A DNA stretch of 35,088 nt from an uncultured cyanobacterium (GTDB lineage: Bacteria; Cyanobacteriota; Cyanobacteriia; Gloeomargaritales; Gloeomargaritaceae). Positions 13,335 through 17,065 of this stretch are shown piece after piece. The stretch lies in NCBI GenBank assembly GCA_937936705.1, contig CALHCP010000160.1, positions 1 to 35,088 of the forward strand, in the 5' to 3' direction. Position 1 is the first letter of the stretch; the number at the start of each line of letters is the position of its first letter. Below the pieces are notes generated by a model. The model was not told where the DNA came from. It did not search any database and saw only the letters and a program-made list of their open reading frames with translations. A program made the position numbers and the translations under genes.

Positions 13335-13400
13335 AAGTTTCGCTCCCGTTGGGGGTGAATGGTGCTCGTTCGTCCTATTTACCGTTGAGTGAAGGAGTCT

Positions 13401-15179
13401 ATGACCAAAACCCATTCCCAGACCACGCCTACCCTGAAAATCATTCCGTTGGGGGGTCTGCACGAAATCGGCAAAAACACCTGTGTCTTTGAGATCAACG
13501 ATGAAATTCTCCTGTTAGATGCGGGGTTGGCCTTTCCTACGGAATCTATGCACGGGGTACAGGTGGTGCTGCCGGATTTGACCTACCTGCGGGAAAACCG
13601 CCACAAAATCAAAGGGATGATCATCACCCACGGGCACGAAGACCACATCGGCGGCATTCCCTTCCATCTGCAACAAATTGACATTCCCATCATGTATGGC
13701 CCCCGTCTGGCGATTGCCCTGCTGCAAGCCAAGCTGGAAGAAGCCGGGGTGGCCAATCGCACCCAACTGCATACCGTCGGCCCGCGGGATTTTGTGCGGA
13801 TTGGCAATTCCTTCCTGGTGGAATTTATCCGTAATACGCACTCGATTGCCGATAGCTTTACGGTAGCATTACATACTCCCGTGGGGGTGGTCATCCACAC
13901 GGGTGATTTTAAGATGGATCACACTCCCATTGACGGCGAACGGTTTGACCTGCAACGCCTGGCGGAACACGGCGAAAAGGGGGTGCTGTGTTTGATGAGT
14001 GATTCCACCAATGCGGAAGTAGCCGGGTTTACGCCGTCGGAACGGGCGGTGATTCCGGGGTTAGACCGGGCGTTTAGCGAAGCGCCGGGGCGGTTGTTGG
14101 TGACGACGTTTGCCTCCTCGGTGCATCGGGTGAATATCATTTTGCAGTTGGCACAAAAACACAAACGCAAGGTTTCGGTGTTGGGACGTTCCATGCTGAA
14201 TGTGATCGCCCATGCCCGCACTTTAGGGTATATTCAATGTCCTGACGATTTACTGCAACCGCTACACGTGATCCGGCATTTACCCGATGACCAAGTGGTG
14301 ATTTTAACCACGGGTTCCCAGGGGGAGCCGTTGTCGGCTTTGACGCGGATTGCCAACCGGGAGCATAAGGATATTCAAATTCGCCCCACCGATACGGTGG
14401 TGTTTTCGGCCAACCCGATTCCCGGCAACACGATTGCGGTGGTGAATACCATTGACAAGTTGATGGCGCAGGGGGCGAAGGTGATCTACGGCAAGGAGCG
14501 GGGGATTCACGTGTCCGGGCATGGCTGTCAGGAGGATCAAAAACTGATGCTGGCGTTGACCAAACCCAAGTTTTTTGTGCCGATCCACGGGGAACACCGG
14601 ATGTTGGTCAAGCACAGCGAAACGGCGCAGGCGCTGGGTGTGCCCGCAGAAAATATCGTGATTGTGGACAACGGCGATGTGATCGAACTGACTCCCGACC
14701 GGATTCAGGTGGTCGGTCGGGTCAAGGCGGGCATCGAACTGGTGGACACCTCCGGGGATGGGGTGGTGGACGGCAAAGTTCTCAAAGAACGGCAACGCCT
14801 GGCGGATGACGGTGTGGTGACGGTGGCGGCCACGCTGGATACTCAGGGGCAACTGTTGGCGACTCCAGCGGTTCATGCCCGCGGTGTGGTGACGGCGATT
14901 GACCTGGGATTACTGCGGCAGCTGGTGCAGGAAACCCTGAGCCAAACGGTGCAGGAGCGTTGGTCGGAATTTGCCGTGAATGGGACGGATATTGACTGGA
15001 CGGGATTGCGGGAAGCGATGGAAGCGGCTCTGCAACGGCTAATCCGCCGGGAACTCAAAAGCCATCCCCTGTTGATTTTCCTGCTGCAAACGACGGCTCC
15101 GGCTGCCGCCAACGGCTCGGTCACGGAAGAGGTCAACCGGCGTACCCGCAAACGGCGCAGTGAAGTGGCTACGGTGTAA
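13401..15179 (+). CDS. rnj: Ribonuclease J
   Basis: A 5'-to-3' exo- and endoribonuclease for mRNA turnover and rRNA maturation in the cytoplasm. The 592-residue protein has the metallo-beta-lactamase motif HGHEDHIGG (His77, His79, Asp81, His82), then HTGDFKMD, the beta-CASP motifs SDSTNAE and GSQGEP, and IHGEHRML. A C-terminal domain of about 120 residues follows. I chose ATG 13401, which sits 5 bp after AAGGAG; an in-frame GTG at 13389 is less likely. The KRRSEV basic tail is unremarkable. The next gene begins 2 bp after the stop. Confidence 0.96.
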   Translation: MTKTHSQTTPTLKIIPLGGLHEIGKNTCVFEINDEILLLDAGLAFPTESMHGVQVVLPDLTYLRENRHKIKGMIITHGHEDHIGGIPFHLQQIDIPIMYGPRLAIALLQAKLEEAGVANRTQLHTVGPRDFVRIGNSFLVEFIRNTHSIADSFTVALHTPVGVVIHTGDFKMDHTPIDGERFDLQRLAEHGEKGVLCLMSDSTNAEVAGFTPSERAVIPGLDRAFSEAPGRLLVTTFASSVHRVNIILQLAQKHKRKVSVLGRSMLNVIAHARTLGYIQCPDDLLQPLHVIRHLPDDQVVILTTGSQGEPLSALTRIANREHKDIQIRPTDTVVFSANPIPGNTIAVVNTIDKLMAQGAKVIYGKERGIHVSGHGCQEDQKLMLALTKPKFFVPIHGEHRMLVKHSETAQALGVPAENIVIVDNGDVIELTPDRIQVVGRVKAGIELVDTSGDGVVDGKVLKERQRLADDGVVTVAATLDTQGQLLATPAVHARGVVTAIDLGLLRQLVQETLSQTVQERWSEFAVNGTDIDWTGLREAMEAALQRLIRRELKSHPLLIFLLQTTAPAAANGSVTEEVNRRTRKRRSEVATV

Positions 15180-15181
15180 CT

Positions 15182-16000
15182 ATGCGCCGGGAATTTGCCA
15201 GCCGGGCGGACTTGATTGCCTATGTGACCCAAGTCTTTCCGGGGGCAACGGGGGCGGTGAGTGAGACGGTAGGGGGGCGGACGGTTGCCCTAGAAAAGCT
15301 GGCCGCCCTGCAACCCGACCGTTACGGCCACTCCCGCAATGAGTTGGAGGGGGCGGTGACTCGGCTATCCCCCTACATTCGCCATGGGGTGCTGACGCTG
15401 GCGGAGGTGCGGGACCATCTCCAGGCGCAGGGGTATGCTTGGGCGGTGGTGGAACCCCTGCTCCGGCAATTGGCCTGGCGGGACTATTGGCAGCAATTGT
15501 ATGAACAATGGGGGGACGGGATTTGGGACGACCGGGAACCCTACAAAACCGGATTCACCGCCGCTGATTATGCCGATGAATTGCCGCAGGATATTATCAA
15601 CGGCACCACCAGCTTAGATTGTATGGATCATTTTAGTCGGGAATTGCAAACAACCGGGTATTTACACAACCACGCCCGCCTGTGGTTGGCTGCCTATATC
15701 ATCCATTGGCGTCGGGTGAAATGGCAGGCGGGGGCGCGTTGGTTTTTGAGTCATCTGTTAGACGGCGACCCGGCCAGTAATCAGCTCTCCTGGCAGTGGG
15801 TGGCGAGTACCTTTAGTGTGAAACCCTATTATTTTAATCAGGAAAATCTCGCCCGTTTTAGCCGGCGCAAATGGTGTGCCACCTGTCCCCACGCAGCCCA
15901 AACCTGCCCCTTTCGGGGGAGTTATGAACAGTTACACAAGCAACTCTTTCCCCATGCCGAAGCAAGCCACTCCAGCCGTCGTTTGGGTACACGGCGATAG
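15182..16000 (+). CDS. Photolyase/cryptochrome FAD-binding half, stand-alone
   Basis: This 272-residue protein corresponds to the C-terminal helical FAD-binding domain of DNA photolyases and cryptochromes, without the N-terminal alpha/beta domain. Visible motifs are RYGHSRNELEG, LSPYIRHGVLT, QLAWRDYWQ, TGYLHNHARLWLAAY and HLLDGDPASNQLSWQWVAS, the last two being core FAD-contact segments. The end has KWCATCPHAAQTCPF. Cys147, Cys232, Cys235 and Cys242 are spaced similarly to the four [4Fe-4S] ligands I recall for the iron-sulfur bacterial photolyase PhrB (350, 438, 441, 454). An iron-sulfur cluster is therefore plausible but inferred. It starts 2 bp after rnj, and the next gene, which resembles the missing N-terminal half, overlaps it by 77 bp. 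Confidence 0.85.
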   Translation: MRREFASRADLIAYVTQVFPGATGAVSETVGGRTVALEKLAALQPDRYGHSRNELEGAVTRLSPYIRHGVLTLAEVRDHLQAQGYAWAVVEPLLRQLAWRDYWQQLYEQWGDGIWDDREPYKTGFTAADYADELPQDIINGTTSLDCMDHFSRELQTTGYLHNHARLWLAAYIIHWRRVKWQAGARWFLSHLLDGDPASNQLSWQWVASTFSVKPYYFNQENLARFSRRKWCATCPHAAQTCPFRGSYEQLHKQLFPHAEASHSSRRLGTRR

Positions 16001-16385
16001 CCTCAGCCCCACCAATCCGGCTTTGCTCGCCAATCCGGGCGCACCGGCGGTGTGGGTCTGGGACGAGGAATTGTTGGCGCAATGGCAGATCAGCCGCAAG
16101 CGAATTGTGTTTATCTATGAATGTTTATTAGAATTACCCGTAGCCATTCGCCGGGGCAAGGTGGTGCCGGAAATCCGCCAATTTATGCAGGAACACGCTG
16201 CCCAAACAATCGTCACCACCGCCAGTCCGAGTCCGCGTTTCCGGGCAATTTGTCAAGAATTATCAGGTTCGTTTACTCTAGAAATTTTACCCATGCCGGC
16301 TTTGATCCCACCCCAAAAGCATCTGGATTTGCGGCGATTTTCCCGCTATTGGAAAGTGGCAGAAAAAGTGATTTATCCGCGTTAA
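15924..16385 (+). CDS. Photolyase N-terminal (alpha/beta) half, stand-alone
   Basis: The protein has 153 residues from ATG 15924, which has GGGGAG 3 bp upstream; GTG 15876 and ATG 15954 are also in frame. The sequence AVVWVHGDSLSPTNPAL, then AVWVWDEELL, the SRKRIVFIYECLLELP helix and TIVTTASPSPRF follow the pattern of the Rossmann-like N-terminal domain of photolyases. It ends RRFSRYWKVAEKVIYPR, where the linker to the FAD domain would begin. It lies downstream of, and overlaps, the FAD-binding half, so the domain order in the DNA is reversed relative to ordinary photolyases. The two may form a heterodimer. Identification as photolyase-related is by pattern only. Confidence 0.75.
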   Translation: MNSYTSNSFPMPKQATPAVVWVHGDSLSPTNPALLANPGAPAVWVWDEELLAQWQISRKRIVFIYECLLELPVAIRRGKVVPEIRQFMQEHAAQTIVTTASPSPRFRAICQELSGSFTLEILPMPALIPPQKHLDLRRFSRYWKVAEKVIYPR

Positions 16386-16399
16386 TTCGGCGACTGACG

Positions 16400-17065
16400 A
16401 TGCGTTTTGATGTGGTCACGTTATTCCCGGAGTTTTTCACCAGTCCTTTGGCGCAGGGGTTGATCGGTAAAGCCTTGGCCAAACAAATTGCCACGGTGGT
16501 TTATACCAATCCGCGGGATTTTACCACCGACAAACATCAACGGGTGGATGACGAACCCTACGGTGGGGGGGTGGGGATGGTGCTCAAGCCGGAACCCATT
16601 TTTGCCGCGGTGGAATCTTTGCCCCAGTGGCCACCGCGGGAAATTATTTTACTCACCCCCCAGGGGGAACGCTTAAGCCAATCCCATTTCCGGCAATGGG
16701 CAACCTATCAACAACTGGTGTTGATCTGTGGGGCTTATGAGGGTTTTGATGAGCGGATTCGTTATTTGGCCGACCGAGAAATTTCCCTGGGCGATTTTGT
16801 CTTGACCGGTGGCGAGATTCCGGCTTTGACGATTATCAACGGGGTGATGCGATTGCTCCCCGGAACGGTGGGTAAACCGGCCTCTTTAGTCTGCGAAAGT
16901 TTTAGTGAATCTTTATTGGAATATCCCCAGTACACCCGTCCGCCGGAATTCCGGGGTTGGCAGGTGCCGGAGATTTTGCGTTCCGGCAATCACCAGGCGA
17001 TTGCCGCGTGGCGGGTGGCGCAGCAAAAACAACGCACCCAAAGCCGTCGCCCGGATTTAGGGTGA
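16400..17065 (+). CDS. trmD: tRNA (guanine-N1-)-methyltransferase TrmD
   Basis: It methylates G37 next to the anticodon of tRNAs reading CNN codons, preventing frameshifts, with SAM as donor. The 221-residue protein begins MRFDVVTLFPEFF, the typical start, and has DEPYGGGVGMVLKP at 51-64, CGAYEGFDERI at 110-120 and the knotted SAM-binding segment GDFVLTGGE at 131-139. The open frame extends upstream, but MRFDVV is clearly the start. It follows the photolyase-like half by 14 bp. Its 3' end overlaps the converging TIGR02450-like gene by 9 bp. Confidence 0.96.
   Translation: MRFDVVTLFPEFFTSPLAQGLIGKALAKQIATVVYTNPRDFTTDKHQRVDDEPYGGGVGMVLKPEPIFAAVESLPQWPPREIILLTPQGERLSQSHFRQWATYQQLVLICGAYEGFDERIRYLADREISLGDFVLTGGEIPALTIINGVMRLLPGTVGKPASLVCESFSESLLEYPQYTRPPEFRGWQVPEILRSGNHQAIAAWRVAQQKQRTQSRRPDLG

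What the first reader, a model, noticed from the sequence alone, without database searches (positions are those of the whole stretch)
15182..16385. Split, order-reversed photolyase-like pair with a candidate iron-sulfur Cys quartet
Seen: the FAD-binding half of a photolyase (272 aa) is a separate gene, and the gene resembling the N-terminal alpha/beta half (153 aa) lies downstream, overlapping it by 77 bp, so the halves are in reversed order. Seen: Cys147, Cys232, Cys235 and Cys242 in the FAD half have gaps of 85, 3 and 7 residues. Known, from memory: PhrB-type bacterial photolyases hold a 4Fe-4S cluster on cysteines 350, 438, 441 and 454, gaps 88, 3 and 13. Inference: a two-subunit iron-sulfur photolyase or cryptochrome, placed in an RNA-processing operon (rnj, trmD).
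Basis: partly seen in the sequence, partly recalled or inferred. Interest (0 to 1): 0.72.

Follow-up and report, generated by a model that had tools for sequence, protein, structure and literature searches.

The report
Split, reversed-order photolyase (Phr4/Phr5) pair
Two adjacent genes in a Gloeomargarita cyanobacterium encode the two halves of a light-driven DNA-repair enzyme in swapped order; the arrangement was already described in marine Synechococcus as phr4/phr5, and here it is shown to be much wider, with the two genes always found together even when they lie far apart in the genome.

Summary
ORF 15182-16000 (272 aa) is a stand-alone photolyase FAD domain. ORF 15924-16385 (153 aa) is a weak but real photolyase N-domain, overlapping it by 77 bp. 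The four cysteines have gaps 85/3/7. The pair is the Gloeomargarita version of phr4/phr5, published by Haney et al. 2022 (PMC9426592), who already reported the reversed order, the split, a natural fusion (phr6) and the four Fe-S cysteines.

New here: Phr4 and Phr5 co-occur in 58 of 58 cyanobacterial genomes; in 10 they lie far apart on one contig; all three reading phases occur among adjacent pairs. So two separate chains, not a +1 frameshift fusion, are the general form. The cysteines are invariant in 49 of 50 non-redundant Phr4s, lost together in one, and pair column by column with crystallised PhrB-type Fe-S photolyases. Deinococcus plasmids carry the same protein, fused in three and split in one. 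The rnj/trmD setting is confined to Gloeomargarita and says nothing about function. Structure prediction failed (pLDDT 45-47), so interface and cluster geometry are untested. The lesion repaired is open.

The parts
15182..16000 (+). phr4: stand-alone FAD-binding photolyase domain, 272 aa, with Fe-S type cysteines C147, C232, C235, C242
   Evidence: Pfam FAD_binding_7 E 8e-21; 54-60% identical orthologues in 50+ cyanobacterial genomes; cysteines 49/50; in register with PhrB/CryB
15924..16385 (+). phr5: photolyase N-terminal-type alpha/beta (antenna) domain as a separate 153-aa protein; start at 15924 or 15954
   Evidence: PF00875 in 20/21 family members, PDB photolyase N-domains best hits of profile; start codons compared
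15924..16000 (+). 77-bp overlap of phr4 and phr5 in different frames
13389..15179 (+). rnj, ribonuclease J; its stop is 2 nt before phr4 (neighbour, not part of the system)
   Evidence: TIGR00649 682 bits; neighbourhood conserved only in Gloeomargarita
16400..17065 (+). trmD, tRNA (m1G37) methyltransferase, 14 nt after phr5 (neighbour, not part of the system)
   Evidence: TIGR00088 304 bits

Best explanation
The two genes are the Gloeomargarita orthologues of phr4 and phr5, a two-chain photolyase. Phr4 holds FADH- and, on C147/C232/C235/C242, very probably a [4Fe-4S] cluster; Phr5 docks on it as the alpha/beta antenna domain that usually forms the N-terminus of a photolyase. Excited FADH- (directly, or fed by an unidentified antenna pigment on Phr5) would donate an electron to a UV photoproduct in DNA and split it. 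Shown: the domain identities, cysteine conservation and register, FAD-site and N5-side Asn conservation, obligate co-occurrence, and fusion into one chain in other species. Inferred: heterodimer, cluster loading, antenna function, light-driven repair and the lesion repaired.
For: Domain hits. Orthology to published phr4/phr5, whose phr4 mutant in Synechococcus RS9916 survives UV-C 20-30 times less well, while phr4/phr5 raises UV-C survival of a photolyase-less E. coli 10-20 times (PMC9426592). Co-occurrence 58/58 in 292 genomes, including 10 pairs far apart on the same contig and 8 on different contigs. Single-ORF fusions in the same order in G270 and three Deinococcus plasmids. Fe-S cysteines 49/50 and paired one-to-one with CryB 3zxs and relatives by profile alignment, probability 98-99%. 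E. coli photolyase N378, W382, W359 equivalents are N200, W204, W181 (alignment) and are conserved.
Against: In E. coli the UV-C protection by phr4/phr5 did not differ significantly between light and dark, so light-driven catalysis is unproven. No usable structure: models had mean pLDDT 46.9 and 45.4. One phr4/phr5 pair (G229, L068) has lost all the cysteines, so the cluster is not essential to the class. The distal Trp of the classical triad (E. coli W306) is Ile138 here. Phr5 has no demonstrated pigment.
Confidence: 0.72

Rival explanations
1. A single reversed-order protein is made by programmed +1 frameshifting in the overlap (as Haney et al. considered for Synechococcus); the two ORFs are translated as one chain.
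For: phr5 lies in the +1 frame in all Gloeomargarita genomes with an intact overlap; natural in-frame fusions exist; a CCC-C stretch lies in the overlap of all seven genomes compared.
Against: In 10 genomes the genes are 0.48-4.9 Mb apart on one contig, six of them on opposite strands. All three phases occur among adjacent pairs, even within one genus (g60: L070, L088, L092), and many pairs show the -3 offset of an ATGA-type stop/start overlap. CCC is 44% of proline codons in this window and the residues there are constrained. Every Gloeomargarita genome retains an ATG for phr5.
Confidence: 0.08
2. A cryptochrome-like light sensor rather than a repair enzyme.
For: Phr4/Phr5 protection in E. 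coli was not significantly light dependent; the third triad Trp is missing.
Against: Asn at the N5-side position (E. coli N378) is invariant; loss of phr4 lowers UV-C survival and transfer to E. coli raises it; closest catalytic relatives are NewPHL photolyases according to PMC9426592.
Confidence: 0.15
3. Decaying remnants of a photolyase, without function.
For: One Gloeomargarita genome (G241) has phr4 cut by a 179-bp repeat; G284 holds a second, truncated copy.
Against: 54-82% identity across the phylum with 81 near-invariant residues, intact ORFs and strict co-occurrence.
Confidence: 0.02

Closest known systems
Phr4/Phr5 (and fused Phr6) of marine Synechococcus and Cyanobium, Haney et al. 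2022 (PMC9426592)
   Same: Same two domains, same reversed order, split genes, four Fe-S cysteines (RS9916 Phr4 C169, C254, C257, C263: gaps 85, 3, 6)
   Different: Overlap of 77 bp in the +1 frame instead of a short spacer; rnj-phr4-phr5-trmD neighbourhood; Gloeomargarita is not mentioned in that study
NewPHL / Phr7 (Emmerich et al. 2020, known here only as cited in PMC9426592)
   Same: Catalytic FAD domain first, second domain after it; shared HNH and DGDxASN signatures
   Different: One chain, no Fe-S quartet, and its C-terminal Z-domain shows no detectable sequence relation to Phr5 (hhalign probability 0.2%)
PhrB/CryB-type bacterial (6-4) photolyases with [4Fe-4S] (3zxs, 4dja, 8ijy)
   Same: Four cysteines in the same alignment positions, KPY...CxxC...CPF motif
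   Different: Order alpha/beta then FAD in one chain; third-to-fourth Cys gap 13 instead of 7; about 22% identity; PF04244-type N-domain rather than PF00875

Membership tests
Phr4/Phr5 reversed-order photolyase | Stand-alone FAD_binding_7 protein and stand-alone DNA_photolyase-domain protein, FAD gene first | tested here: met
Phr4/Phr5 reversed-order photolyase | Orthologous to the picocyanobacterial genes | tested here: met
   55-59% identity to phr4 of family f19 (the family that also holds the Phr7-bearing small genomes) and one group with them, support 93/95; the published RS9916 sequence itself was not compared
Phr4/Phr5 reversed-order photolyase | Four Fe-S cysteines in the FAD half | tested here: met
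Phr4/Phr5 reversed-order photolyase | Light-driven repair activity and heterodimer formation | not testable with these tools
   needs protein; also not settled in the published work
PhrB/CryB Fe-S (6-4) photolyases | Cys quartet in register | tested here: met
   hhalign
PhrB/CryB Fe-S (6-4) photolyases | N-terminal alpha/beta domain fused before the FAD domain in one chain | tested here: not met
   separate downstream PF00875-type gene
NewPHL | FAD domain followed by Z-domain in one chain | tested here: not met
   two genes; Phr5 profile does not match the Z-domain

The most novel reading that the evidence does not exclude
A true heteromeric photolyase: the catalytic Fe-S/FAD chain and the antenna chain are separate gene products that assemble in trans across many cyanobacteria, can be regulated apart, and are single chains in some Deinococcus plasmids and picocyanobacteria. 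Haney et al. raised a heterodimer only as one possibility.
Probability: 0.55. Interest if true: 0.55.

Novelty: new member of a known kind. Interest (0 to 1): 0.36.

Why it matters
All photolyases with solved structures known to me are single chains. The co-occurrence of phr4 and phr5 in 58 of 58 genomes, including unlinked pairs, makes the two-subunit hypothesis of Haney et al. stronger than their own data did and argues against their frameshift alternative as the general rule. The set of split pairs, fusions and one cysteine-less pair is a ready-made natural experiment on what the iron-sulfur cluster and the antenna domain do. The Deinococcus plasmid copies extend the class to a genus known for radiation resistance.

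Tried and rejected
Three viral-contig scans found no relatives to deepen the alignment. Phage records hold only distant photolyases. A sequence link between Phr5 and the NewPHL Z-domain was tested and not found; a first test was spoiled by a wrong cut in L098 and one degenerate shuffle. The idea that the CCC-C stretch plus the neighbouring trmD (m1G37, which limits +1 slippage at proline codons; from memory) controls a frameshift was considered and set aside: CCC is a common codon here and the residues are constrained. Emmerich et al. 2020 is not held.

Full report
Observation. The 272-aa protein is a photolyase FAD domain (PF03441, E 8e-21); the 153-aa protein gives a sub-threshold PF00875 hit. 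A profile of 21 relatives of the 153-aa protein has photolyase/cryptochrome N-domains as its best PDB matches (E 6e-5 for 8p4x, aligned to its N-terminal domain), and 20 of 21 members hit PF00875.

Identity. A literature search found Haney et al. 2022 (PMC9426592). They describe phr4 and phr5, adjacent genes for an FAD domain and a photolyase domain in reversed order, in all marine Synechococcus and half of the Cyanobium strains. They report the fused form phr6 in two Cyanobium strains, the four Fe-S cysteines in all Phr4 and Phr6, and Phr7 (NewPHL) as closest relative. They predict a (6-4) photolyase from the cysteines. A phr4 insertion lowers UV-C survival 20-30 fold, not UV-B survival. The phr4/phr5 region raises UV-C survival in E. 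coli, without a significant light effect. The finding is therefore a new member of a published kind. The window comes from a Gloeomargarita-type genome (nearest named relative: Gloeomargaritales cyanobacterium VI4D9), a lineage not mentioned in that paper.

Distribution and two-chain character. In 292 genomes of the phylum, 58 carry phr5 and the same 58 carry phr4; the only additional phr4-like hit counted is a 451-aa single-chain relative in G026. Of the 58 pairs, 34 are adjacent (one of them, G270, a single ORF), 6 lie within 3 kb, 10 are far apart on the same contig (6 of these on opposite strands) and 8 are on different contigs. Among adjacent pairs all three reading phases occur, also within one genus, and many show the -3 offset of an ATGA-type overlap. 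This fits two translationally coupled proteins and does not fit a conserved programmed +1 frameshift. Fusion into one ORF is seen in G270 (582-aa open frame) and in plasmids of Deinococcus wulumuqiensis (472 aa), Deinococcus sp. AJ005 (456 aa) and D. psychrotolerans (457 aa), whereas Deinococcus sp. QL22 has two ORFs overlapping by 4 nt. Co-occurrence without linkage plus fusion is classical evidence that two proteins work together; that they form a stable heterodimer is inference.

Iron-sulfur cysteines. In 50 non-redundant Phr4 sequences the quartet is invariant in 49 and missing as a set in one (L068, G229); the Deinococcus proteins keep it. Profile alignment of Phr4 with PhrB/CryB-type enzymes (3zxs, 9hnk, 8ijy and the host's own PhrB-like protein) pairs all four with the corresponding cysteines of the Fe-S enzymes, probability 98-99%. 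Vibrio cholerae (6-4) photolyase ligands Cys357/445/448/461 have gaps 88/3/13 (PMC9852545). The cluster itself is thus very likely but not shown. Its presence does not prove (6-4) specificity: the nearest catalytic relatives, NewPHL, act on CPDs in single-stranded DNA according to PMC9426592.

Catalytic features. By the alignment to E. coli photolyase (1dnp), N378, W382 and W359 correspond to N200, W204 and W181, all conserved in the family, while W306 corresponds to Ile138. The Asn at the N5 side speaks for a photolyase (general knowledge of the family).

Context. dapA-rnj-phr4-phr5-trmD is conserved in other Gloeomargarita genomes (dapA checked where the locus reached it; in G241 trmD lies elsewhere), but rnj and trmD were not found beside phr4 in any other cyanobacterial locus examined. 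Six of seven same-genus genomes have intact phr4; the one genome of the sister genus has only distant photolyases. In G241 phr4 is interrupted by a 179-bp repeat present in more than 30 near-identical copies.

Limits. Structure prediction was not informative. The tree of FAD domains has long branches and supports only the unity of cyanobacterial plus three Deinococcus Phr4s (97/94) and of NewPHL (100/99); deeper order is unresolved. Genome counts rest on an even draw of 292 genomes of the phylum, not all of them.

Noticed in passing
L037:1226-1404 (G241:C1:1031425-1031603): A 179-bp element with GGGACTTT/AAAGTCCC ends, more than 30 near-identical copies in genome G241 and none in G000 or G085, interrupts phr4 before the CxxC motif: a MITE-like element.
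   Followed up: partly
L106:3947-5365, L107:3893-5263, L108:3857-5230, L109:3899-5190: Deinococcus plasmids carry fused (three) or split (one) Phr4-Phr5 with the Fe-S cysteines, annotated only as FAD-binding domain-containing protein.
   Followed up: partly
L068:4187-5404 (G229): A phr4/phr5 pair in which all four Fe-S cysteines are lost together; a natural cluster-less version.
   Followed up: partly
L069 (G026) and L111 (Persicobacter plasmid): Single-chain relatives without the cysteine quartet whose C-terminal part matches the Phr5 profile (hhalign probability 91%; reversed control 1%).
   Followed up: partly
L003:1210-2697 (G000:C105): The window genome's own PhrB-like photolyase lacks the Fe-S cysteines, so Phr4 may be its only Fe-S photolyase (genome 83% complete).
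   Followed up: no
L067 (G284:C1:293268-293917): A second, truncated phr4-phr5 copy in a genome that also has an intact pair; part of the stretch reads N.
   Followed up: no
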